A stretch of DNA of 64,000 bases from assembly GCF_030733745.1 (NCBI RefSeq), contig NZ_JASHIK010000009.1, positions 123,772-187,771 on the forward strand, read 5' to 3'. Position 1 is the first letter of the stretch, and each line of letters starts with the position of its first letter. Shown piece after piece: positions 7,249 to 16,922 of the stretch. Made by a program: the position numbers and the translations under genes. Source of the DNA: Stappia sp. MMSF_3263. GTDB taxonomy: Bacteria; Pseudomonadota; Alphaproteobacteria; Rhizobiales; Stappiaceae. The notes beneath the pieces are model-generated. The model did no database searches, had not been told where the DNA came from, and saw only the letters and a list, made by a program, of their open reading frames with translations.

Positions 7249-8304
7249 TCAGGCCCAGGTCCTGTCCAGCACCGACAGCCAGTTCCTCCAGGCGATCTTC
7301 CGGATCAGTTCCTCGCCGTAGCCGGCATCGCGAAAAGCCTGCAGCAACACCGGCAGCCCGGCGACGTCCGCGATCGCTCGCGGCACCAGGCAGCCGTCGA
7401 AATCCGACCCCAGCGCCACCCCGTCCTCGCCCAGCCGCGCGATCATGTGGTCCATGTGCCGCACCATGACCTCGAGCGGCGTGTCGGCGCGATGGCCACC
7501 GTCGGGCCGCAGGAACGCGACATGGAAATTCAGGCCTGCAAGGCCGCCGCTTTCGGCGATGGCGTCGAGCTGCCTGTCCGTGAGGTTGCGCGCCGACGGG
7601 CAGACCGCATGGGCGTTGGAATGCGAGGCGACCAGCGGCCGGTCGCTCAGGGCCGCGACGTCCCAGAAGCCTTTCTCGGTGAGGTGCGACAGGTCGATCA
7701 TGATCTTCAGCCGGTTGCAGGCGCGCACCAGCTCCTTGCCCGCGTCGGTCAGTCCGGGCCCGCTGTCGGGTGAGGCCGGGCAGGCCATCGGCGCGCCGTG
7801 GCCGAAGACGTTGGAGCGGCTCCACACCGGGCCGAGCGAGCGCAGGCCGGCGGCGTGCAGCACGTCCAGGGCGATGAAGTCCGGGTCGATCGCCTCCGCC
7901 CCCTCGATATGCAGCACCATGGCCAGCGACCCTGCTGCCATCGCCGCGCGGATGGCATCCGCGTTGCGGCAGATGGTGATATCGCCGCCGGAGTCGCGTT
8001 CCAGCCTGAACGCCCTTGCGGCCATGCGCAGCGTGAAGGCGAGGGCGGCGGGCTGTTGGACTTCTGCGAAATTGGCCGGATCCTGCGGGTCGTAGCGCAG
8101 GTTCACCCCCTCGCCGAGGCGTGAGGGCACATACATGGCGAAGAGCCCGCCGGCAAAACCGCCGGCCCGCGCCCGGGGCAGGTCGATATGGTCGCGCGAG
8201 GCGTGCTCGAAAAAGGAGCGTTCGCGCGGTGTCCCGGCACCCAGTTCCAGCTTCAGCAAGGTGTCGTTATGTCCGTCGAAGACGGGGACGGGAGCAGCCA
8301 CCAT
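7249..8304 (-). CDS. M19-family (membrane dipeptidase-type) zinc dipeptidase
   Basis: A 351-residue metallopeptidase. Metal ligands of the M19/renal dipeptidase family are visible in order: DGHNDT (His12, Asp14), HIEGAEAID (bridging Glu134), DLSHLT (His207), SHSNAHA (His228) and GSDFDG (Asp301). The family hydrolyses dipeptides, some with D- or modified residues. The ATG at 8304 has AAGGA eight bases before it; the frame continues open upstream, but that is antisense to the next gene. It is divergent from the aminotransferase operon across a 252-bp region holding an AT-rich palindrome. It may process a dipeptide linked to that pathway (inference). Confidence 0.9.
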   Translation of the reverse strand: MVAAPVPVFDGHNDTLLKLELGAGTPRERSFFEHASRDHIDLPRARAGGFAGGLFAMYVPSRLGEGVNLRYDPQDPANFAEVQQPAALAFTLRMAARAFRLERDSGGDITICRNADAIRAAMAAGSLAMVLHIEGAEAIDPDFIALDVLHAAGLRSLGPVWSRSNVFGHGAPMACPASPDSGPGLTDAGKELVRACNRLKIMIDLSHLTEKGFWDVAALSDRPLVASHSNAHAVCPSARNLTDRQLDAIAESGGLAGLNFHVAFLRPDGGHRADTPLEVMVRHMDHMIARLGEDGVALGSDFDGCLVPRAIADVAGLPVLLQAFRDAGYGEELIRKIAWRNWLSVLDRTWA

Positions 8305-8435
8305 TCGGGAGATCCTTGTCGTTCGGGCCCGCGGGCCTGCACACGTTGGCGTGGCCGGAGTGTCGCCGCCGCCTTCGCGGCTGGCAAGAGCCGGTGTGAC
8401 GGCCCATGAAGGGGGCGCGCGTGTCTTCATGCCCA

Positions 8436-8462
8436 TAATTATTATTAATTGCATAATAATTA
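8436..8462. promoter_or_regulatory. AT-rich 10-bp perfect inverted repeat, probable operator
   Basis: TAATTATTAT (8436-8445) and ATAATAATTA (8453-8462) are perfect inverted repeats separated by seven bases. Together they form a 27-bp almost pure A/T palindrome in a high-GC region. It lies in the divergent intergenic region between the M19 dipeptidase and the aminotransferase operon. The following 70 bases contain a TATAAA-like hexamer at 8527-8532. The site is placed to control both transcription units. The regulator is not encoded next to it. Confidence 0.6.
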
Positions 8463-8556
8463 AAAATGCACTTTGAGGTTGCAATTCCCTAAGGTTCATG
8501 ATGAGATTGTGAGAACAGTTGCAGTATATAAATTTTACAGCGCATTGGGTGATGGC

Positions 8557-10047
8557 ATGTTCGTCGAGCGACTGGCCGACCCTCCTCAGGGTGAAACCTA
8601 TCGAAAACTGCAACGTGCCCGCCAAGCCCTGATGGGGGTGGACGAGGCAGGTTTTCCCTGCTCTCCGGGCATGTTCGATGCCGGCGTGGTCTCCTTTGCT
8701 CATGGCGAGGGGGTGCGCCGTCCCTGGCACGGCGCGGTACGTGCGGCGCTGGGCGCGATCGCGGACGCGCATGGCAGTCCGATCGAGAACTACATGTTCC
8801 TGCGATCCTTTCCCGATCTGGAAACAGCGATCCGCGATGAATTCGTCCGCAACGGGGTTCCCGAAAGCTTTGCCGGCGAAGTCGTTCTCGATGCCGGCTC
8901 GACCCGGCTGATCGTCGCGGCCCTTGCGCTGGCGACCCGGGAGGGGGCGGAAGTCGTCACGGCTCCGGGCTTCTACCATCCGCTCGCCGGCTGGTGCGCC
9001 TATCTCCGGCGCACCCTGCATGTCGTGCCCGGCGAGCGCTCGCGCGACTACAAGCTGAGCGCCGAGGCGCTGGCGCGGTTCCTCGCCGGGCACCGGGCCG
9101 AGCTGCCACCGGTCCTGCTGCTGTTCAACCCGACCATGACAGGCGCGGTCTATTCCCGACCCGAGCTCGAGGCCATCGCCGACGTGCTGCTGACCCATGG
9201 CATGATCGCGCTCGAGGATGCGCTCTTCGCCGGGTCCGAGCATGATCCGGCGGCGCACCGGGCGCGGCTGGCGGCAACGCGGGCCGGGTCCCGCTGCCTG
9301 ACGGTCGCCGGCGCCAGCAAGCTGCATTGCCTTGCCAACCTGCGCATCGGCTGGGGCTGCGGGCCGGCCTGGATGATCGCGGCGCTGAAGGACTTCATCA
9401 CCTCCTCCTCCGCCAGCCTGCCGCATGTCGGCAAGGCGGCCGCGCTCGGCGCGCTGCAGGCGCCGGCACGCTTCATCCACCGCAATGTCGCGGAATGCCG
9501 CGACCGCATCGCCCTTGTGGAGGAACTTGTCGGCAGCCTCGATGCGCGTTTGCGCCGGGCGACGGGGAGCACCGCTCCGGTGGTCGAGATCGGCCATCCG
9601 GTCACTGCCGGCCATTCGTTGCTGATCGAGTTTCCGGGCCTTGAGGGGCATGCGGGGCCCGACGGCGCCGAGCTGGTCGACGGGGCCGACCTCACGTCCT
9701 TCTTCCTGCGCGAGGCCGGCGTCGCCTTCGCGCCCGCCCTGTCGCACGGCTTCGACGGGCTCAAGCTGCGCGCCAATGTCGCCTCGCTCGGCACCAGGCA
9801 CACATATGCGGCCTCGCGCGGCTTCGAGATCGATCCGCCCGCCGGCTGGGGCGATGCGCAGGAACGCGCCTTCGACGAAGGTTTCGCCAGGGGGCGGGAG
9901 GAGATCGCGGAGGCTTTCGCCGAGCGCATCGAGCCGGCCCTGCTGCGTCTGCTGACCCCGGCCCGCCCGGCGAGGGTGGCACGCCCCGCGCAGCGCCGCG
10001 AGAGGGTACCGGGCGATGGCGCCGCGCATGCGGGAGCCGTGTCATGA
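8557..10047 (+). CDS. Fold-type I PLP aminotransferase (class I/II-like)
   Basis: A 496-residue protein with an aminotransferase core. Visible elements are a DAGSTRLIVAALAL segment (cofactor phosphate region), LLFNPTMTGAVYSR (the NPxNPTG-like loop), and VAGASKLHCLANLRIGWG, whose Lys is the expected PLP Schiff-base lysine. The last 40 residues are a Pro/Arg-rich tail. The ATG at 8557 was chosen because the sequence before it is AT-rich promoter-like DNA. An in-frame GTG at 8509 and TTG at 8473 would lengthen the protein. Its stop overlaps the next start (ATGA). It is the first gene of the four-enzyme operon. The amino donor and acceptor are unknown. Confidence 0.8.
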   Translation: MFVERLADPPQGETYRKLQRARQALMGVDEAGFPCSPGMFDAGVVSFAHGEGVRRPWHGAVRAALGAIADAHGSPIENYMFLRSFPDLETAIRDEFVRNGVPESFAGEVVLDAGSTRLIVAALALATREGAEVVTAPGFYHPLAGWCAYLRRTLHVVPGERSRDYKLSAEALARFLAGHRAELPPVLLLFNPTMTGAVYSRPELEAIADVLLTHGMIALEDALFAGSEHDPAAHRARLAATRAGSRCLTVAGASKLHCLANLRIGWGCGPAWMIAALKDFITSSSASLPHVGKAAALGALQAPARFIHRNVAECRDRIALVEELVGSLDARLRRATGSTAPVVEIGHPVTAGHSLLIEFPGLEGHAGPDGAELVDGADLTSFFLREAGVAFAPALSHGFDGLKLRANVASLGTRHTYAASRGFEIDPPAGWGDAQERAFDEGFARGREEIAEAFAERIEPALLRLLTPARPARVARPAQRRERVPGDGAAHAGAVS

Positions 10048-11066
10048 CCGGCGCCGGCCTGCAGCGTCCGACCTCCGTTCCGTCACCGGCGCCGACCGGC
10101 TTGCTATGGCCTGACGTGCTGCCACGACGTGTCGCGGGGCTGCGCGGGCTCTTTGCTCACGGACAGGGCGAGCCCGCTGCCGGCCGTGCGCCACGCGCAC
10201 TTCTGGTCGATGTCTGGGGTGTCCTGACGGACGGGACGAGAGCCTTTCCCCGGGCGCTTGAGGCTGTTGCGACCGCCCGCGCCCTCGGGGTTCCGGTCGT
10301 GCTCGTCTCCAACACCTCGCGCCGCTCGGGTGAGCTTGCCGCGATGCTTGCGGTCCAGGGCATCGGCGAGACGCACTTCGATGCCATCGTCACCGGCGGC
10401 GAGCTGGCCTTCCACCACGTGCGGGCCTTGAGCGAACCGCGCCGGCTGCAGGGCAGTCCCCAGCTTCGCGCGCTGGTGCTCGGTCATCAGCCGGGCGGGC
10501 ACTGGGCGGCGGCGGCAGGGCTGGCGGAGACGGATGACCCGGATGCGGCCGACCTCGTCCTGGGCGTCGGCATTCTCGGCGAGCTCGACGGGGCTGTGCC
10601 CCTCGGGCAGGAGCGTCCCGATACGCCAACCCTTGAAATCCTGCGCCATGCCGCCGGCCGGCGGCTGCCGATGATCCTCACCAATGCCGACCGGCGGGTG
10701 CGCCTCGCCGGCCGCCTGTATGCCGGCATCGGAATACTCGCCGATGCCTACCGGGTGCCCGGCCAAGACCCGGCCGGGACGGTCAGTGTCTTCGGCAAGC
10801 CGGGGCGGGCGGTGTTCGACGCGGGCCTGGCGCTTGCCGGGCGGGTTCCCGCCGGCGAGGCGCTGATGATCGGCGACACGCTGACGACCGACATTGCGGG
10901 CGCCGCCGCGCTGGGCGCCCGGACACTACTGGTCAGCAAGGAAGGCTCGCATGCCGCCACCCTGCATCCGGGCCCGGGAGGCGCGCTCTGCGCCGGCGGG
11001 CTTGCCGGCCTTATCGAGGAAACGGGCATCAGGCCCGACCATGTCATGGAGGCGCTCAAATGGTAG
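10044..11066 (+). CDS. HAD-superfamily class IIA phosphatase (NagD/TIGR01459-like)
   Basis: A 340-residue protein. Residues 52-64 read ALLVDVWGVLTDG, the motif I of the class IIA HAD subgroup in which the second Asp is replaced by Trp (nucleophile Asp56). Motif II is VSNTS (88-92), motif III includes GKPG (251-254), and motif IV is IGDTLTTDIAG (277-285). An N-terminal extension of about 50 residues is Pro/Gly-rich. Family members dephosphorylate small phosphorylated metabolites. The start overlaps the aminotransferase stop by four bases and the end overlaps the next start by seven bases, so the three genes are translationally coupled. The substrate is unknown. Confidence 0.8.
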   Translation: MTGAGLQRPTSVPSPAPTGLLWPDVLPRRVAGLRGLFAHGQGEPAAGRAPRALLVDVWGVLTDGTRAFPRALEAVATARALGVPVVLVSNTSRRSGELAAMLAVQGIGETHFDAIVTGGELAFHHVRALSEPRRLQGSPQLRALVLGHQPGGHWAAAAGLAETDDPDAADLVLGVGILGELDGAVPLGQERPDTPTLEILRHAAGRRLPMILTNADRRVRLAGRLYAGIGILADAYRVPGQDPAGTVSVFGKPGRAVFDAGLALAGRVPAGEALMIGDTLTTDIAGAAALGARTLLVSKEGSHAATLHPGPGGALCAGGLAGLIEETGIRPDHVMEALKW

Positions 11067-12226
11067 ACCAGCATCCGCGTGCGACCGTTCTCGTCTTCGG
11101 CGCCGGCGTCATCGGCGGGCAGGTCTGCGACCTGCTGGCGCGCATGGACGATCGCTTTCGCATCGTCGTCGCCGCGCGCAACGCCGCCCGGCTCAACGAG
11201 CGGGCCAACCTGACCATCACCTCGGCGCTCTGTCTCGGCCACCAGCCGGATGTCGTCGCCGTCCCCTGCGACGTGACCCAGACCGACCGCTGCGCGGCGC
11301 TGATCGCGCAGGTCGATCCCGACATTGTCGTCAACGCCACCAGTGTGCAGACCTTCTGGCGCATCTCGCAGCTTCCCGGTGAGTGCCACAAGCGTCTCGA
11401 GCAGGCGAAGATCGGCCCCTGGCTGCCCAATCACCTGGCCACCGCGCGCGCTCTTATGCGGGCGATGCGCGCCGCCGGCAGCTCCGTGCCGGTCGTCAAC
11501 GCCTCCTTCCCCGACGCGGTCAATCCGGCGCTTGCCACCGTCGGTCTCGCGCCGCTGGTGGGTGGGGGCAACATCGCCAACATCGTGCCGACCCTGACCC
11601 GGGCCGCCGCCCGCCAGCTCGGCCGCGAGCGCACTGATCTTGATCTCGTCTTCGTCGCCCATCATGTCGCTTGCAACGCGATCTCCTCCCACGGATCTCC
11701 CGGCACCGCGCCCTACTGGCTGCGGGTGATGGACGGGGACCGCGAAGTGACCGATGAGCTCGACCATACGGCGCTGTTCGCCAGCGTCACCGGGGAGTTT
11801 CGCCGGGTGCGCGGCATTACCGGCCAGATCGTCGCCGCCTCCGGCGTCGCGGCGGTGGTCAGCGCGCTGGCCCGCGCCGATGGCGACCGGCTGATGCATG
11901 TGCCGGGGCCGAACGCGCTGCCCGGCGGCTACCCGGCCCGCGTGGGGCGCGGCCGGGTGGAGCTGGCGCTGCCGGAGGGTCTGGACCGGGACGATGCCAT
12001 CCGCGTCAATCTCGAAGGTCAGACGGTGGAAGGCATCACCGAGATCCGTCCGGACGGGACCATCGTCTATGGCGAGCCGGAAATGGCGGTCCTGCGCGAG
12101 GCGTTCGGCTATGATTGCGCCCGCATGCATGTCGACGAAGTCGACGACTGGGTCGGCGACCTGCAGGCCCGCTACACCGCCTATGCGGCCCGCCATGGCG
12201 TGCCGGTCGAGGGAGCGCGGGCATGA
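11060..12226 (+). CDS. Saccharopine dehydrogenase-like NAD(P)-dependent reductase
   Basis: A 388-residue protein opening with a Rossmann fold: ATVLVFGAGVIGGQVCDLL (glycine motif at residues 14-20), then an acidic strand and DPDIVVNATSVQTFW, and VVNASFPDAVNPAL. This is the saccharopine dehydrogenase/homospermidine-synthase-like group, which forms or cleaves a secondary amine between an amino acid and an oxo-acid or aldehyde. It begins seven bases inside the HAD gene and shares ATGA with the methyltransferase. In this operon it could join or reduce the product of the aminotransferase (inference). Specific substrates cannot be read from the sequence. Confidence 0.75.
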   Translation: MVDQHPRATVLVFGAGVIGGQVCDLLARMDDRFRIVVAARNAARLNERANLTITSALCLGHQPDVVAVPCDVTQTDRCAALIAQVDPDIVVNATSVQTFWRISQLPGECHKRLEQAKIGPWLPNHLATARALMRAMRAAGSSVPVVNASFPDAVNPALATVGLAPLVGGGNIANIVPTLTRAAARQLGRERTDLDLVFVAHHVACNAISSHGSPGTAPYWLRVMDGDREVTDELDHTALFASVTGEFRRVRGITGQIVAASGVAAVVSALARADGDRLMHVPGPNALPGGYPARVGRGRVELALPEGLDRDDAIRVNLEGQTVEGITEIRPDGTIVYGEPEMAVLREAFGYDCARMHVDEVDDWVGDLQARYTAYAARHGVPVEGARA

Positions 12227-12981
12227 ATTCCGCCGCCGAAAGCCGCAAGGACCTGCCGTCCGGAGCCGTGGGCGAAAGCCTGGTCACCGCCAATCGGCGC
12301 GGCCGCACGACGACGCGTCTGAACGAGATCAACGCCCGCTTCGCGCAGCTTGCCGGCGAGGCGAGGCTTCCGGTTCTCGATCTCGGCTGCGCCTTCGGGG
12401 TCGCCGCCCATGCGGCGCTGGCGGCCGGCGCCACGGTGATCGCCAACGACATCGATCCCCTCCACCTGGAGGAGACGGCGCGCAACGCGCCGCCGGGCAC
12501 GAGCGACCGGCTTCGGCTTGCTCCCGGCGCATTTCCGGCCGGGCTCGATTTCGATGATGGCAGCCTTGCCCTCGTCCATGCGTCCAACCTGCTCAATTTC
12601 CTCAAGGGTGAGGAGATCGACGCCGGGTTCGCCAGCATCTTTCGCTGGCTGGCGCCGGGTGGCCGGTTCCTGTCCATGTCGGGGTCGCCCTATTCGGCCA
12701 ATATTCGCGGTTTCATTCCCGCTTACGAGGCCAATGTCGCGGCCGGTCTCGACTGGCCCGGCGAATGCCATGACCTGCATGCCCGTTCGGACGACCCGAC
12801 AATCGCCGAACTGCCGGATTTCCTGCACCTGCTCGATCCCGCCGTGCTGTCGCGCTCGGCGCGCGAGGCCGGCCTCGAGGTCGAGGAGGCGCAGTTCTTC
12901 AACCGGGCCGGGACGCCCGACTACATCGCGCTCGACGGGCGCGAGAATGTCGTGTTCGTCGCCCGCAAACCTTTGTTGTGA
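12223..12981 (+). CDS. Class I SAM-dependent methyltransferase, last enzyme of the operon
   Basis: A 252-residue soluble protein. Motif I is VLDLGCAFGVAAHAAL (51-66), followed by an acidic ND-IDP turn that should bind the ribose, and GGRFLSMSGSPY after the fourth strand. The start (ATGA with the previous stop) was chosen over an upstream in-frame ATG that would overlap the reductase by more than 100 bp. The stop is only 20 bp before the tRNA-like gene, so the RNA is probably on the same transcript. The target is unknown; a small amino-acid metabolite fits the neighbourhood (inference). Confidence 0.78.
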   Translation: MNSAAESRKDLPSGAVGESLVTANRRGRTTTRLNEINARFAQLAGEARLPVLDLGCAFGVAAHAALAAGATVIANDIDPLHLEETARNAPPGTSDRLRLAPGAFPAGLDFDDGSLALVHASNLLNFLKGEEIDAGFASIFRWLAPGGRFLSMSGSPYSANIRGFIPAYEANVAAGLDWPGECHDLHARSDDPTIAELPDFLHLLDPAVLSRSAREAGLEVEEAQFFNRAGTPDYIALDGRENVVFVARKPLL

Positions 12982-13001
12982 AACAGAAAAGGTTCACGAA
13001 T

Positions 13002-13189
13002 GCATCCGTAGCTTAACCGGTGAAATGCTGCAGCGGAACGCCTGGAAGGCCTGGCGACTGGGGAATGATTTCACCAGGGCATCGTCATTCCACCCCGACC
13101 CGGATCCCGGAACGGCGGACTAAATGCGGCTTAAGAGCACCAGCTTTGGGAGTTGGTAGGTGCGGGTTCGAGTCCCGTCGGGTGCGCCA
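13002..13189 (+). tRNA. tRNA-like gene: Arg-type body, UGG anticodon, ~110-nt D-loop insertion
   Basis: The acceptor arms GCATCCG (13002-13008) and CGGGTGC (13179-13185) pair over seven positions (one G-U), followed by discriminator G and encoded CCA. D-stem GCTT (13011-13014) pairs with GAGC (13135-13138). The anticodon stem CCAGC/GTTGG encloses TTTGGGA, giving anticodon UGG (13147-13149). The T-arm is GCGGG-TTCGAGT-CCCGT. Acceptor, G73 and the TAGC start are tRNA-Arg-like; bacterial tRNA-Pro normally has C1-G72 and A73. The D-loop, AACCGGT...TTAA, holds an insertion (about 13022-13130). This closes with GCTGCA/TGCGGC (13027-13032/13125-13130) and contains a hairpin at 13060-13094. A T6 run follows. 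It is either a functional specialised tRNA or an interrupted pseudogene. Confidence 0.72.
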
Positions 13190-13224
13190 TTTTTTCCGGC
13201 ATTGCCGCCGGAACCAGGACTATG

Positions 13225-13253
13225 CGGGCCGGCCGTCATGCGCGGCCGGCCCG
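13225..13253 (+). promoter_or_regulatory. Strong 11-bp hairpin in the leader of the CCA-rich gene
   Basis: CGGGCCGGCCG (13225-13235) and CGGCCGGCCCG (13243-13253) are perfect complements around a seven-base loop. The hairpin sits between the tRNA-like gene and the small CCA-rich ORF, 72 bp before its ATG. There is no T-tract directly after it. It could separate the RNA gene from the mRNA (processing site), act as an attenuator, or protect the 5' end. Its role is not determinable from sequence. Confidence 0.55.
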
Positions 13254-13308
13254 TGGGGTTTCCCGGCCATTGCCGGTCGAGACCCGGAGATTTCCAGCCA
13301 TGGAAAGG

Positions 13309-13319
13309 AAAGGAGGTGA
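13309..13319 (+). promoter_or_regulatory. Near-perfect Shine-Dalgarno of the CCA-rich gene
   Basis: AAAGGAGGTGA matches the full anti-Shine-Dalgarno complement and lies five bases (AAATC) before the ATG at 13325. It is the strongest ribosome-binding site I noticed in the window. It decides the start of the small ORF and implies high translation, which argues against that ORF being a chance frame. Confidence 0.85.
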
Positions 13320-13324
13320 AAATC

Positions 13325-13666
13325 ATGGACAAAGTGATGGCCATTCGCGAGATCAAGGCCGCGCTCGCACTGACGAGCTCGCGTCTCTCCGAAACCGCTG
13401 CTCCAATGGCGCAGCGATCCGTGCCAGCGTCTGGCTTGCCAGCCGCGATGCCAAAACTGGCTGCTCCACCCGCTGTTCCAGCGGGCAAGGGCGTGCCAGC
13501 CGGTGCTCCACCGCTTGGCGTGCCACTGAGCGTACCAGCTGCAGATCTTGATGATCTGTCGGTACCAGCGGCGCATCCACTGGCGCGTGATGCGGCGCCA
13601 ATCGCCAGCGCGGCACCAGTCGTCGCCGGCGCACTCGCCAGGTTCGAAGCCGTTCCAGCCCGCTGA
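13325..13666 (+). CDS. Small 113-codon protein with CCA-restricted 'proline' positions
   Basis: Residues 1-25 form a plain helix-like head, MDKVMAIREIKAALAL, without prolines. The remaining 88 residues are rich in Ala, Val, Leu and Gly. There are 17 proline codons, of which 15 are CCA (residues 27, 34, 39, 43, 48, 52, 58, 62, 67, 71, 81, 85, 92, 98, 111), one CCC (49) and one CCG (63). Both exceptions directly follow a CCA. The CCA codons recur mostly every 4-6 residues. The tRNA-like gene upstream has the matching UGG anticodon. If CCA is read as an Arg-like residue, the protein becomes strongly cationic and possibly helical (inference). Otherwise it is an Ala/Pro-rich low-complexity protein. 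Other codons are also less GC-biased than in its neighbours. No family is recognised. Confidence 0.75.
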   Translation: MDKVMAIREIKAALALTSSRLSETAAPMAQRSVPASGLPAAMPKLAAPPAVPAGKGVPAGAPPLGVPLSVPAADLDDLSVPAAHPLARDAAPIASAAPVVAGALARFEAVPAR

Positions 13667-13745
13667 TCGCAGGCAGGCGGAAGACGGTGGCCCTGCCGCC
13701 CGGACCCGCCGCACCGGAACGCTTTCGGATTACGGACGTGCACAT

Positions 13746-13781
13746 GATGCCCTGGAAAGATGCCCTGGAAATGATGCCCTG
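13746..13781 (+). repeat. 13-bp tandem repeat, 2.7 copies
   Basis: GATGCCCTGGAAA occurs at 13746-13758 and again directly at 13759-13771. After one extra T, GATGCCCTG follows at 13773-13781. It lies in the 178-bp gap between the CCA-rich gene and the convergent ArgRS-like gene. It may be slippage debris or a protein-binding array; no coding role is evident. Confidence 0.7.
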
Positions 13782-13793
13782 TAGAACACGGCG

Positions 13794-13827
13794 CCGCGGG
13801 AGGCAGGCCTTTGGGCCGCTTCCGCGG
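13794..13827. terminator. Long hairpin between the convergent CCA-rich and ArgRS-like genes
   Basis: CCGCGGGAG pairs with CTTCCGCGG (13794-13802 with 13819-13827, one G-U). The stem is extended by GGCC/GGCC with small bulges around a TTT loop. It sits between two convergent genes, so it is probably a bidirectional transcription barrier. There is no T-tract, so it would rely on stem stability or Rho. Confidence 0.5.
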
Positions 13828-13844
13828 TCGCCTCGTCGCGCGGG

Positions 13845-15728
13845 TCAGTGCCGCCCCGTATCTTGAGGCCCCTGCCTGACACTGGCACCTGAAACCGGCT
13901 GCTGCGCGCGGTCCTGTCCGGCGCGGCCGGGTTCCCCGTCACCACCGCCGATCCCCAGGACCGCGAGCCCCGCGGCCGTCAGCCGGGCGAGAACGCCCCG
14001 CGCCATCTCCTCCCCCGTCCGATCCCGGTTTCCCGTCTCCTCCCCCGGCTCGGCAAGCCGCTGAAGGAACCGCGCCACCGCCACCGGATCGTCGCGCTCG
14101 CACGCCTGCAGCACGACCCGGCGCAGCCGTTCGCCTTGCAAGAGCGCGAAGCGTGCCTCGGGCGTCGTCGTGTTTCCTCCGGCAGCACCCCCGCTGCCAC
14201 TGGCGGCAAGACGCGCCACTGCCCATCCTGGGTTCGCTGCCCCGTCGGCGAGTGCGGCCAGGTCGATGTCGAGCGTCGTGCCGGTCTCGGCAAGGAGAAA
14301 GGGGAGAAGCGCGGCCGCCACGAGTGCCATTCGCCGGCTCGCCGGAGACAGGACGGCAAGGTCGGCGGGCATGGCGCGCTCGAGCGCGTCGATCAGGTCG
14401 TCGATCAGGATCGCGTTGCCGGCGCTTGATTTCATGTCGGAGCCGGCGACGCGAACCAGCTGGTGCGCCACCATCCGATAGTGGTCGAACAGCGTGCCCG
14501 CGCCAAGCCGGCGCAGGGTTTCGATGCGGATTTCCGAGGAGACCAGCCATTCCTCGCCCATCACATGGATCAAGCGGTCGGGCATCTCGTCCGGTTTCGC
14601 ACCCGCCGCCAGCGCCTCGTCCCGCCACAGGACGAGGGCACGCAGGTGTTCGGTGGCGAAGCCGTCGCTGCGGGTCAGGGGGCAGCGCGGATAGTCCTCG
14701 CGCCCGGTCTCAAGGACGATGCCGGCCGCGTCGGCGCTGCCGAGCCCGGCGCTCAGGATCTCCGTGCCCAGCCGCGCGCATCCGGGCACCGCGGCGGATT
14801 CCAGCAAGGTCCGGTCGAAGCCGATGCCAAGCCGGCTCAGTGTTTTCGCCTGGTCACCCAGAACCCGTTCGATCATCCGCCGCCACAAGGCGAGTGTCGC
14901 GGGGTCTTGCCCCCTCCACCGCGCCAGGACATCGTCGGCGGCATCGCCGTTCACCGTCAGTTCGCGGGCGATCGGCTGGTCGGCGAGCGCCACCTCTCCC
15001 TCGCCCTGGCCTTGGCGATGATCCTGACCACGGCCCGGGTCGGCCTGTTCGGCCTGTCTGGTCTGTCCGGCCTGTGCGGCGACATAGGCGCCGTAGAGCC
15101 CGCCGAGGTCGCGGTCGAGCCGTGTCGGGCGCGCCAGCAGCTCCTCCGCACCGGCCGCGATCAGCCCGGCCATCGCCTCGGCGATGTTGCGACCGATGTC
15201 GCAGACGACGCTTTGCCGGACAACGCTTGCGCCGCGGGCCTGCCACAGGCTGGCGAGCGCGTGGCCGAGCGCTGCGTTGCGCAAATGCCCCACATGCAGG
15301 GCCTTGTTGGCGTTGGGGTCGAGAAAATCGACGGAGATCCGCATGCCCTTGGCCGTCGCGGAAAGGCGCAGCGGGTCGGCGGGATCGGCCCGCAAGCCGG
15401 CCAGCAAGGCGTCGAACACGGCGGCGGCAAAGCGCAGCGTCAGCCGGTTGCCGGAAAGCCTTGCGCTCTCCACCAGCGGATCTGCCTCGACCTCGGCAAG
15501 CACCGCCCTGCCTGTCGCCTTGTCGAGCCGGCCGCGAAAGATCACCGACCCGTCGGCGGCGCCTTGGGGGCTCCGGCGGAAATCCGTCTGGCGGTCGATG
15601 CCGGGCGCGACCCGGTCGAGCAGGGTCTCGATCCGTGCGCTCAGGTCGCCGGGAAGAAGGCGTGCGGGCAAAGCGTGCCCGGGAACGGGCGCCTCGGGTC
15701 CGGCTTCCGGTGTCGTGTCGCTTCGCAT
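13845..15728 (-). CDS. Divergent arginyl-tRNA synthetase paralogue
   Basis: A 627-residue class I synthetase of the ArgRS type. The N-terminal part (about 20-115) corresponds to the ArgRS add-on domain that contacts the tRNA D-loop. Then come DPNANKALHVGHLRNAALGH with the HIGH-box HVGH at 145-148, GFDRTLLES, an LTRSDG segment at 351-356, HVMGEEW, and a KMSKS-equivalent loop degraded to DMKSSAGN (431-438). A shortened DALR-type anticodon-binding region follows to about residue 593, then a 30-residue Gln/Gly tail. A low-complexity Gln/Gly insertion occupies 217-249. ArgRS normally needs C35 and A20 of its tRNA, which the neighbouring tRNA-like gene lacks. The substrate amino acid is unknown. 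It is presumably not the housekeeping argS. Confidence 0.85.
   Translation of the reverse strand: MRSDTTPEAGPEAPVPGHALPARLLPGDLSARIETLLDRVAPGIDRQTDFRRSPQGAADGSVIFRGRLDKATGRAVLAEVEADPLVESARLSGNRLTLRFAAAVFDALLAGLRADPADPLRLSATAKGMRISVDFLDPNANKALHVGHLRNAALGHALASLWQARGASVVRQSVVCDIGRNIAEAMAGLIAAGAEELLARPTRLDRDLGGLYGAYVAAQAGQTRQAEQADPGRGQDHRQGQGEGEVALADQPIARELTVNGDAADDVLARWRGQDPATLALWRRMIERVLGDQAKTLSRLGIGFDRTLLESAAVPGCARLGTEILSAGLGSADAAGIVLETGREDYPRCPLTRSDGFATEHLRALVLWRDEALAAGAKPDEMPDRLIHVMGEEWLVSSEIRIETLRRLGAGTLFDHYRMVAHQLVRVAGSDMKSSAGNAILIDDLIDALERAMPADLAVLSPASRRMALVAAALLPFLLAETGTTLDIDLAALADGAANPGWAVARLAASGSGGAAGGNTTTPEARFALLQGERLRRVVLQACERDDPVAVARFLQRLAEPGEETGNRDRTGEEMARGVLARLTAAGLAVLGIGGGDGEPGRAGQDRAQQPVSGASVRQGPQDTGRH
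15040..15075 (-). repeat. Four 9-bp tandem repeats inside the ArgRS-like gene
   Basis: On the plus strand TCGGCCTGT is repeated at 15040 and 15049, with degenerate copies CTGGTCTGT and CCGGCCTGT at 15058 and 15067. In the protein this encodes the QAGQTRQAEQA stretch of the low-complexity insertion. It marks recent expansion by slippage in a surface loop. Confidence 0.7.
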
Positions 15729-15818: not shown

Positions 15819-16922
15819 TCAGGCGGCCGCCGCGCGCTCGGGGAAGAGGCCGGCCAGCCCGTCGGCGCTCGCCGCGCAGATGCCGCGTTCGGTGATCAGC
15901 CCGGTCACAAGCCGCGCCGGGGTGACGTCGAAGGCCGGATTGGCGGCCGGCGTCGTCTCCGGGGTGATCAGAATGGTCTCGATCCGTCCGTCCTCCGTGC
16001 GGCCTTGCAGATGCGTCACTTCGCGGCCCGAGCGTTCCTCGATGGGGATTTCCCTGAGGCCGTCGCTCACGGTCCAGTCGATGGTCGAGGAGGGCAGGGC
16101 GACATAGAAGGGCACGCCATTGTCATGAGCGGCGAGGGCCTTCAGATAGGTGCCGATCTTGTTGCAGACATCGCCGGTGGCGGTGGTGCGGTCGGTCCCC
16201 ACGATCACCATGTCGACCAGGCCGTGCTGCATCAGGTGGCCGCCGGCATTGTCGACGACGAGCGTGTGCGGCACCCCGTGCCGGCCCAGTTCCCAGGCGG
16301 TCAGCCCGGCGCCCTGGTTGCGCGGGCGGGTCTCGTCGACGAACACATGCACGGGCACGCCCGCATCATGCGCCTGGTACATGGGCGAGGTTGCCGTGCC
16401 CCAGTCGACGGTGGCAAGCCATCCGGCATTGCAATGAGTGAGGATGTTGACCGGCTCGCCGGCCGGCTTGCGGGCGGCGATCTTGCGGATGATGGTCAGT
16501 GCGTGCCCGCCGATGGCGTGGTTGACGGCGACGTCCTCCTCGCAGATCTCGCCGGCCTGCTGCCAGGCCGCGGCGGCCCGTTCGCCCGGGGCGAGCGGCA
16601 TCAGGCGATTGCGCAGGGCATCGAGCGCCCAGCGCAGGTTGACCGCCGTCGGCCGGGTCGCGATCAGCGTCGCATAGGCCTTCTCCAGGGCCGCGTCCGA
16701 CGCGTCGCGATGCAGCGCCAGCCCCATGCCGTAGGCGGCGGTCGCCCCGATCAGCGGCGCGCCGCGCACCCACATGTCGCGGATCGCGGTCGCCGCATCC
16801 TCCAGCGAGACGAGATCCACCGTCAGGAATTCGTGCGGCAGGCGGGTCTGGTCGATGATGCGCACCGCCTCGCCGGTGGCAACCGGCCAGATGGAGCGAT
16901 AGGGCGTGCCGTCGATCTTCAT
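15819..16922 (-). CDS. mtnA: Methylthioribose-1-phosphate isomerase
   Basis: A 367-residue protein of the eIF2B-alpha-like sugar-phosphate isomerase family. Recognisable signatures are [17 protein letters not shown] near residue 50, [18 protein letters not shown] with the catalytic Cys, and [21 protein letters not shown] with the catalytic Asp. It converts 5-methylthioribose 1-phosphate to methylthioribulose 1-phosphate in methionine salvage. Length and motifs match MtnA rather than the regulatory eIF2B subunits. It lies 90 bp upstream of the ArgRS-like gene in the same direction, so the two could share a transcript. Confidence 0.93.

What the first reader, a model, noticed from the sequence alone, without database searches (positions are those of the whole stretch)
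8304..15728. Candidate genetic-code-expansion locus: dedicated ArgRS paralogue, UGG tRNA, CCA-marked target gene and biosynthetic operon
Seen: four coupled enzymes (aminotransferase, HAD phosphatase, saccharopine-dehydrogenase-like, methyltransferase), then 20 bp later a tRNA-like gene with an Arg-type acceptor and UGG anticodon, then a strongly translated small gene with 15 of 17 Pro codons as CCA, and a convergent divergent ArgRS. UGG pairs with CCA. Known: ProRS needs A73/G72 and ArgRS needs C35/A20, so neither housekeeping enzyme should charge this RNA well. Inference: the operon makes an arginine-like or other non-standard amino acid, the paralogue loads it on this tRNA, and it is inserted at CCA in the small protein. 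I know of no described system with these parts.
Basis: partly seen in the sequence, partly recalled or inferred. Interest (0 to 1): 0.97.

Follow-up and report, generated by a model that had tools for sequence, protein, structure and literature searches.

The report
Antenna tRNA recoding one bacterial message
Some bacteria carry a gene set that likely expands their genetic code for a single message: a tRNA gene with a 112-base extra stretch that is complementary to repeats just behind one small gene, next to an altered synthetase gene and predicted amino-acid-making genes, and it would insert a non-standard amino acid at that small gene's CCA (normally proline) codons.

Summary
The tRNA gene (window 13002-13189) has an Arg-type body and a UGG anticodon. 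It also carries a 112-nt insert in its D loop that reads as a hairpin with paired changes. The hairpin's loop, CCAGGGCAUC, is the exact reverse complement of two of three tandem repeats behind the small CCA-rich gene; the third matches 9 of 10.

In Rubrivivax the loop and one repeat change together.

CCA makes 125 of 140 Pro codons in the nine SPs. All 13 Pro-Pro pairs read CCA first and another Pro codon second. The ArgRS paralogue folds like ArgRS and keeps its catalytic motifs, but its arginine-pocket positions differ.

Best reading: a tRNA addressed to one mRNA by RNA pairing delivers a non-standard amino acid at CCA in that mRNA only. The amino acid, its charging and its insertion are inferred.

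The parts
8473..10047 (+). PLP aminotransferase-fold enzyme (start codon uncertain)
   Evidence: PF00155. NCBIfam: aspartate transaminase PRK06107 first, GntC next, VioD (capreomycidine synthase) fourth, all far below cut-off; in L014, L015 and L023 GntC is the best aminotransferase model, also below cut-off
10044..11066 (+). HAD-IIA phosphatase
   Evidence: TIGR01459 above cut-off; in one open frame with the aminotransferase in Oceaniradius and Alkalicaulis (L014:7671-9995, L015:7617-10007)
11060..12226 (+). saccharopine-dehydrogenase-like NADP oxidoreductase (SDH)
   Evidence: PF03435; used to find the homologous loci
12226..12981 (+). class I SAM-dependent methyltransferase-fold enzyme (MT)
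   Evidence: PF13649; 54-76% identical to the five relatives aligned
13002..13189 (+). antenna tRNA: Arg-type body, UGG anticodon at 13147-13149, G1-C72, G73, encoded CCA
   Evidence: alignment and fold; covariance model R1, built with it, scores 215 bits; best ordinary match in G000 is tRNA-Arg(CCG), 60 bits
13021..13132 (+). 112-nt D-loop insert (the antenna), placed after G18-G19 at about position 20; imperfect hairpin
   Evidence: pair counts on A7, an alignment fitted to the model; local stem test
13074..13083 (+). antenna loop CCAGGGCATC, complementary to the repeats
13308..13319 (+). extended Shine-Dalgarno GAAAGGAGGTGA of the small gene
   Evidence: the same 12 bases stand before the start codon in nine of nine loci
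13325..13666 (+). small protein SP, 113 codons, 15 of 17 Pro codons CCA
   Evidence: no Pfam or NCBIfam match; 15 database proteins including itself
13746..13755 (+). repeat 1 behind SP (presumed 3'UTR), GATGCCCTGG, 10 of 10 complementary to the antenna loop
13759..13768 (+). repeat 2, GATGCCCTGG, 10 of 10
13773..13782 (+). repeat 3, GATGCCCTGT, 9 of 10
13793..13828 (+). hairpin directly after the repeats, possibly a terminator (no T-run test made)
   Evidence: a strong hairpin follows the repeats in the 6 of 6 loci folded
13845..15728 (-). ArgRS paralogue, 627 aa, convergent

Best explanation
This is likely a natural genetic-code-expansion module addressed to one mRNA: the operon would make a non-standard amino acid, the ArgRS paralogue would charge it onto the UGG tRNA, and the tRNA's 112-nt D-loop insert, part of which is exactly complementary to tandem repeats just behind the small gene, would dock on that mRNA so that its CCA codons would be read as the new residue while CCA elsewhere would stay proline. 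Shown by sequence: the tRNA gene, its insert, the complementarity, the codon bias, the changed synthetase pocket positions and their joint conservation. Inferred: the amino acid and its synthesis, charging of this tRNA, that the repeats lie in the transcript, docking in the cell, and insertion at CCA. The insert sits at about tRNA position 20, where ordinary ArgRS reads A20 (recalled), so it could also be what the paralogue recognises. The second cluster type, with a LeuRS paralogue and other enzymes but the same tRNA, SP and repeats, suggests an interchangeable platform in which the tRNA-SP-repeat core stays and the amino acid and its synthetase change.
For: The tRNA, SP, Shine-Dalgarno and repeats occur together in 9 of 9 genomes found with this tRNA; starting from the tRNA alone, R1 searches of five groups (299, 137, 346, 199 and 8 genomes) found four antenna tRNAs, all with SP and repeats. 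The loop is fully complementary to at least one repeat in 9 of 9; in Rubrivivax the loop reads CCAGGGCGTC and one repeat GACGCCCTGG, while the other two pair through one G-U. In six whole genomes (window, L011, L013, L014, L015, L017) the tandem repeat was found only at the cassette. Stems flanking the loop differ between lineages but still pair: summed length 31 against a shuffled mean of 16.4 and maximum of 29 in 20,000. CCA is 125 of 140 Pro codons; of 13 Pro-Pro pairs, 13 are CCA then another Pro codon. The third base differs in 9 of 307 shared Pro pairs against 267 of 483 Ala, 50 of 116 Val and 32 of 52 Gly; between distant SPs, for example window and Rubrivivax, 0 of 11 against 13 of 15. 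An ordinary tRNA-Pro(UGG) and CCA use elsewhere remain in the host, so an address is needed. HVGH and KSSAGN are kept, but yeast Y347 aligns with E and D351 with A (26 of 33 each) and Q375 with W (33 of 33); the host's own ArgRS keeps Y and D (by eye). Independent cluster type in G1187.
Against: No chemistry is shown. Folding energy of the tRNA or its insert is mostly no better than shuffles (z 0.49; z -0.98, 0.49, -2.91, 0.80, -0.74). RNAalifold on an alignment that includes the divergent member did not recover the long hairpin, and pair counts on A7 come from an alignment fitted to the model. The local stem is not significant on its own in Rubrivivax (P 0.34), G1187 (0.10) or Alkalicaulis (0.08). 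Repeats alone are not specific: 22 of 397 genomes, G000 included, hold the loose two-copy pattern, and 11 viral stretches hold three copies with no cassette. Two non-CCA Pro codons in Rubrivivax SP do not follow CCA. Five of the nine genomes are close relatives and eight were first reached through the synthetase or SDH, so counts overstate independence. The Thr codons of SP also vary little, 1 of 14.
Confidence: 0.77

Rival explanations
1. The paralogue charges a standard amino acid, such as arginine, onto the UGG tRNA, so CCA in this mRNA is read as a standard residue; the operon makes an unrelated metabolite.
For: ArgRS and tRNA-Arg ancestry; in Rubrivivax SP, CCA and Arg codons occupy like places in 'VADXVATRVA' repeats, and an Arg stands opposite CCA once in Alkalicaulis.
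Against: Arg-pocket positions are changed; Arg codons are used beside CCA in the same SP; a different synthetase paralogue and different biosynthetic genes accompany the same tRNA and SP in G1187.
Confidence: 0.1
2. The charged tRNA serves as an amino-acid donor for a peptide-modifying or peptide-bond-forming enzyme (PEARL-like or cyclodipeptide-synthase-like) rather than for decoding; SP is the acceptor or carrier.
For: Aminoacyl-tRNA donors are known in peptide natural products (start of abstract in the listings: PMC11962472; PMC4159871).
Against: No PEARL or cyclodipeptide-synthase domain was found among the cassette proteins scanned; this does not explain the frozen CCA third base, the CCA/non-CCA split in Pro-Pro pairs, or the kept UGG anticodon.
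Confidence: 0.05
3. The tRNA-mRNA pairing is regulatory only (a decoy, a stabiliser or a translation switch), and CCA clusters mark a slow or regulated proline codon.
For: The complementarity is between the tRNA and the region behind SP; the extended Shine-Dalgarno suggests control of translation.
Against: It needs no synthetase paralogue, no Arg-type acceptor and no biosynthetic genes, yet such genes stand beside it in 9 of 9 genomes; it does not explain why the Pro codon directly after CCA is never CCA (13 of 13).
Confidence: 0.05
4. The 112-nt insert is an intron removed from the tRNA precursor; the mature tRNA is normal-sized and the loop-repeat match acts in splicing or precursor control.
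For: Removing it leaves a complete ordinary tRNA.
Against: No intron family matches; it lies in the D loop, not the anticodon loop where bacterial tRNA introns are usually found (recalled); an intron would not need a loop complementary to repeats behind another gene.
Confidence: 0.03

Closest known systems
Selenocysteine system (tRNA-Sec, SelB, SECIS element)
   Same: A dedicated tRNA with an unusual D arm and a cis element in the mRNA that limits recoding to chosen messages (D arm of tRNA-Sec: passages of PMC7609411; the rest recalled)
   Different: Here the codon is a sense codon (CCA), there are many sites per message, the address would be direct tRNA-mRNA base pairing with no SelB-like protein seen in the cassette, and the charging enzyme is a class I aaRS paralogue
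Pyrrolysine system (PylRS, tRNA-Pyl, pylBCD)
   Same: Dedicated synthetase, dedicated tRNA and clustered amino-acid biosynthesis genes (recalled)
   Different: Sense codon, Arg-type tRNA body, ArgRS- or LeuRS-derived synthetase, and an RNA address to one message
Engineered orthogonally translating organelles
   Same: Recoding of chosen mRNAs by bringing the tRNA/synthetase pair to tagged mRNA (passages of PMC10521639)
   Different: Engineered, eukaryotic, protein-mediated (ms2/MCP and a phase-separating assembler); here natural, bacterial and by direct RNA pairing (inferred)
allo-tRNAs and other odd bacterial tRNAs
   Same: Natural tRNAs of unusual shape whose anticodon does not fit the body (passages of PMC7609411)
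   Different: Allo-tRNAs have 8/4 or 9/3 acceptor domains; this tRNA has 7 acceptor and 5 T-stem pairs and a 112-nt D-loop insert, plus a linked synthetase, target gene and address
T-box leaders
   Same: Direct base pairing between a tRNA and an mRNA (recalled)
   Different: A T-box binds the anticodon and 3' end in a 5' leader (recalled); here the D-arm loop matches repeats behind the gene; no T-box match

Membership tests
Natural genetic code expansion (Sec/Pyl kind) | dedicated tRNA distinct from the housekeeping set | tested here: met
   antenna tRNA in the window; ordinary tRNA-Pro(UGG) and tRNA-Arg genes are separate
Natural genetic code expansion (Sec/Pyl kind) | dedicated charging enzyme | tested here: inconclusive
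   an ArgRS paralogue is linked in 8 genomes and a LeuRS paralogue in the ninth; charging of this tRNA is untested
Natural genetic code expansion (Sec/Pyl kind) | the new residue found in protein | not testable with these tools
   needs mass spectrometry
Natural genetic code expansion (Sec/Pyl kind) | recoding of a stop codon | tested here: not met
   the codon matching the tRNA is CCA, a sense codon
Selenocysteine system | specialised elongation factor SelB in the locus | tested here: not met
   no such domain among the window cassette and L139 proteins scanned; the rest of the genome was not searched
Arginyl-tRNA synthetase | ArgRS fold and class I HIGH/KMSKS-type motifs | tested here: met
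Arginyl-tRNA synthetase | arginine side-chain pocket (yeast Y347, D351, Q375; roles recalled) | tested here: not met
   aligned residues are mostly E, A and W; the equivalog cut-off is missed, 80 against 262 bits
Bacterial tRNA-Pro | C1-G72 and A73 | tested here: not met
   G1-C72 and G73 in the antenna tRNA; the host tRNA-Pro has C1-G72 and A73
allo-tRNA | 8/4 or 9/3 acceptor domain | tested here: not met
   7 acceptor and 5 T-stem pairs
PEARL / aminoacyl-tRNA peptide ligase pathway | a PEARL-type ligase in the cluster | tested here: not met
   no such domain in the six window cassette proteins or the L139 proteins scanned; L014 has a LanM-like protein upstream, a different family
tRNA group I intron | group I core | tested here: inconclusive
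   no Rfam intron match at E up to 1

The most novel reading that the evidence does not exclude
A naturally occurring, interchangeable code-expansion platform: a tRNA carries an RNA arm that addresses it to one mRNA by pairing with 3'UTR repeats, so that a sense codon (CCA) means a non-standard amino acid in that message and proline everywhere else. Different bacteria plug different biosynthetic operons and different synthetase paralogues (ArgRS-type or LeuRS-type) into the same tRNA-SP-repeat core, so the same codon would stand for different new amino acids in different species.
Probability: 0.6. Interest if true: 0.99.

Novelty: categorically new. Interest (0 to 1): 0.97.

Why it matters
If true, this would be an amino acid beyond Sec and Pyl that is inserted during translation and, to my knowledge, the first at a sense codon. 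It would also show a new way to give one codon two meanings in one cell: choosing the message by direct tRNA-mRNA pairing. That is the specificity problem that engineered code expansion struggles with, and the parts (tRNA arm, repeats, synthetase) could be portable. The question becomes directly testable with one small protein in named strains such as Stappia stellulata DSM 5886.

Tried and rejected
Housekeeping ArgRS next to SDH in Syntrophomonadaceae (L077, L084): L077's enzyme passes the ArgRS equivalog cut-off (543.7 bits), so it is ordinary and only a chance neighbour; L084 was not scanned. The R1 hits of 76-77 nt in 20 of the 21 genomes matching in Rubrivivax's family, and 11 of the 12 in the own genome, have the length of ordinary tRNAs; ARAGORN named the 5 of those 20 scanned (all tRNA-Arg(UCU)) and all 11 own-genome ones. 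L016, L022 and L037 hits are also ordinary tRNAs.

Repeats as a diagnostic by themselves were rejected: they occur elsewhere in coding and low-complexity DNA. Mobile carriage was not seen: no match to the window's or L139's tRNA in plasmids nor to L139's tRNA in phages (the window's tRNA was not tried there), no ArgRS paralogue in plasmids, and the exact tRNA pattern is absent from viral contigs. Plasmid hits to the LeuRS paralogue (64 records) or MT (12 records) are under 60% identical and were not followed. R1 searches of families and a genus around the finds added only G1187: 1 of 137 (self), 2 of 346 (self and G1187), 0 of 199, 1 of 8 (self).

Product identity: the GntC/VioD likeness of the aminotransferase and the opine-type transporter beside the SDH-AT-HAD set in Roseibium gave leads but no structure. 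MT matches to solved structures were weak.

Limits: the SDH scan kept the best 80 of 102 relatives and used one peptide pattern; protein searches scored only about 8000 candidates each; contigs of the database proteins could not be fetched, so their tRNA and codons were not seen.

Literature: searches (open-licence PubMed Central only; listings with starts of abstracts) showed no description of this system; two papers were read as passages. No paper for the yeast ArgRS pocket residues was found, so their roles are recalled.


Full report
What is there. The window lies in a 5.0 Mb genome (G000) in one genus with Stappia stellulata (kinship of G004; G004 and L011 share the same DNA). Four overlapping genes (aminotransferase, HAD phosphatase, saccharopine-dehydrogenase-like, methyltransferase-fold) are followed after 20 bp by a tRNA gene, then a 113-codon gene (SP), then a convergent ArgRS paralogue. 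ARAGORN misses the tRNA and Rfam sees only its 3' part.

The tRNA. Read by eye and by alignment, it has a 7-bp acceptor, 4-bp D stem, anticodon stem with UGG, 5-bp T stem, G73 and encoded CCA, with A14, G18, G19 and A21 in place. After G19 there are 112 extra nucleotides. The closest ordinary tRNAs by covariance score are tRNA-Arg: CCG in the own genome and, in the five Rubrivivax-family genomes whose hits were scanned, UCU. The host keeps an ordinary tRNA-Pro(UGG) with C1-G72 and A73, so the antenna tRNA lacks the proline acceptor marks (that ProRS needs them is recalled).

The antenna and its target. In the consensus fold of seven tRNAs the insert is a long imperfect hairpin whose apical loop shows CCAGGGCAUC. 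The stem sequences around that loop differ between lineages but still pair: 8, 7, 7, 4 and 5 contiguous pairs in window, Oceaniradius, Alkalicaulis, Rubrivivax and G1187, sum 31, against a shuffled mean of 16.4 and maximum of 29 in 20,000; singly the shuffle fractions are 0.004, 0.02, 0.08, 0.34 and 0.10. On the model-fitted alignment A7, 93.1% of cells pair, against 36-44% when partners are slid by 1-3 columns, and 16 of 22 pairs in the insert helices have two-sided changes (this alignment leans towards the structure). Single-sequence folding energies mostly do not stand out, and adding the divergent member to a free alignment lost the long hairpin. So the local stem and loop are reasonably supported and the lower part of the arm less so.

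The loop is the exact reverse complement of tandem repeats GATGCCCTGG lying behind the SP stop codon; a strong hairpin follows the repeats in the 6 of 6 loci folded. That the repeats are in the SP transcript is inferred from this layout. The nine genomes with the tRNA have two to four such sites, at least one with 10 of 10 complementary bases. Rubrivivax has loop CCAGGGCGTC, one repeat GACGCCCTGG, and two that pair through one G-U. The tandem pattern occurs nowhere else in the window's genome, and among ten further genomes it occurs only at the cassettes of five; the genomes of L010, L012 and G1187 were not searched for it. Loose copies do occur elsewhere in nature, so the repeat alone proves nothing.

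The small gene. SP has no family match. The Shine-Dalgarno GAAAGGAGGTGA stands before its start in nine of nine loci. Pro codons are CCA in 15 of 17 (window), 14/15, 14/16, 14/16, 14/15 (Stappia and kin), 15/19 (Oceaniradius), 11/12 (Alkalicaulis), 18/20 (Rubrivivax) and 10/10 (G1187), in all 125 of 140. Background CCA counts are 79 of 1009 in 41 window ORFs, and 3 of 74, 9 of 75, 2 of 46 and 37 of 200 in neighbouring ORFs of Oceaniradius, Alkalicaulis, Rubrivivax and G1187. The 13 Pro-Pro pairs all read CCA first and another Pro codon second, never CCA-CCA; of the 15 non-CCA Pro codons 13 follow CCA and two, in Rubrivivax, do not. Over all pairs of eight SPs (the ninth, L012, left out as near-identical) the third base differs at 9 of 307 shared Pro codons, against 267/483 Ala, 50/116 Val, 32/52 Gly and 1/14 Thr. 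Between distant SPs, Pro against Ala/Val/Gly/Thr: window-Oceaniradius 2/15 and 21/27, window-Rubrivivax 0/11 and 13/15, Rubrivivax-G1187 0/8 and 13/15. If CCA and CCN both meant proline, neither result would be expected.

Spread and a second type. A profile of the SDH protein found 102 relatives in species genomes, of which 80 were kept. MT homologues were found in 7 of the 80 and the ArgRS paralogue in 6 (L011-L015, L017). The covariance model, run on 46 loci and the window, found the antenna tRNA in exactly the window and those 6; a stricter sequence scan of all loci then held found it only in cassette loci. With G010 this makes 8 genomes of the ArgRS type (L007, L008 and L009 duplicate L012, L013 and L011). 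L016 (Acidimicrobiales) has the four biosynthetic genes but no tRNA, SP or paralogue in its 21 kb. A model search of genome families found one more, G1187. There the tRNA (94.7 bits), SP (10 of 10 CCA) and two repeats stand, in the 15.6 kb fetched, without homologues of the AT, HAD, SDH, MT or ArgRS genes. Around them lie a 676-aa LeuRS paralogue (421 bits, cut-off 548), a methyltransferase-domain protein, a class V aminotransferase, a radical SAM/SPASM protein, an arginase-family enzyme and an ATP-grasp ligase. The tRNA-SP-repeat part is thus the constant core and the chemistry is variable, with one example of the second type so far.

How it likely works. Shown: the parts, the complementarity, the selection on CCA and the joint inheritance. 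Inferred: the operon makes a non-standard amino acid; the paralogue charges it on the antenna tRNA, perhaps reading the antenna itself since it sits at the A20 position that ArgRS normally reads (recalled); the antenna loop docks on the repeats and raises the local level of this tRNA on the SP message; ribosomes there read CCA with it, while the ordinary tRNA-Pro(UGG) reads CCA elsewhere and other tRNAs read the few non-CCA Pro codons in SP. What the amino acid is, and what SP does, stay open. CCA and Arg codons share places in Rubrivivax SP, and the aminotransferase resembles enzymes that cyclise arginine derivatives (all below cut-off), so a cationic arginine-derived residue is a guess for the ArgRS type only.

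Novelty. Sec and Pyl recode stop codons (recalled). No natural sense-codon system with its own synthetase, tRNA, biosynthesis genes and RNA address appeared in the library searched (open-licence PubMed Central, listings with starts of abstracts). The nearest idea is engineered: mRNA-selective recoding in synthetic organelles (PMC10521639, passages).

Noticed in passing
L023:7375-17448 (Roseibium album); L026 has the same SDH-AT-HAD order by tblastn: SDH-AT-HAD genes without tRNA or synthetase, followed by a weak EamA-type transporter match and a nickel/opine-type ABC transporter; a HalD-type halogenase and a LysR regulator lie just upstream. It could make a diffusible metal-binding amino-acid product.
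   Followed up: partly
L016:7597-11883 (Acidimicrobiales MAG): Aminotransferase, HAD, SDH and MT homologues (MT 58% identical) with no tRNA module, SP or synthetase in the locus; next to a peroxiredoxin-like gene.
   Followed up: partly
   Followed up: partly
L014:4088-7246 (Oceaniradius): A LanM-like lanthionine synthetase (DUF4135 plus LANC) upstream of the cassette; whether it acts on anything here is unknown.
   Followed up: no
window 15819-16922 and L027:13273-14490: An IF-2B-family gene (MtnA-like, by my reading) beside the ArgRS paralogue in the window and beside SDH-AT-HAD in Dactylosporangium; a link to SAM-derived methylthioadenosine is possible.
   Followed up: no
L015 and L017, in front of the SP Shine-Dalgarno: The Shine-Dalgarno matches essentially the full 16S 3' tail (recalled); in these two loci a CCTGGA stands shortly before it, which could pair with part of the antenna loop.
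   Followed up: no
most of L018-L090 (many Pseudomonas and Streptomyces loci): Distant SDH relatives (about 30-42% identical) in gene sets without the other cassette genes by tblastn; product unknown.
   Followed up: no
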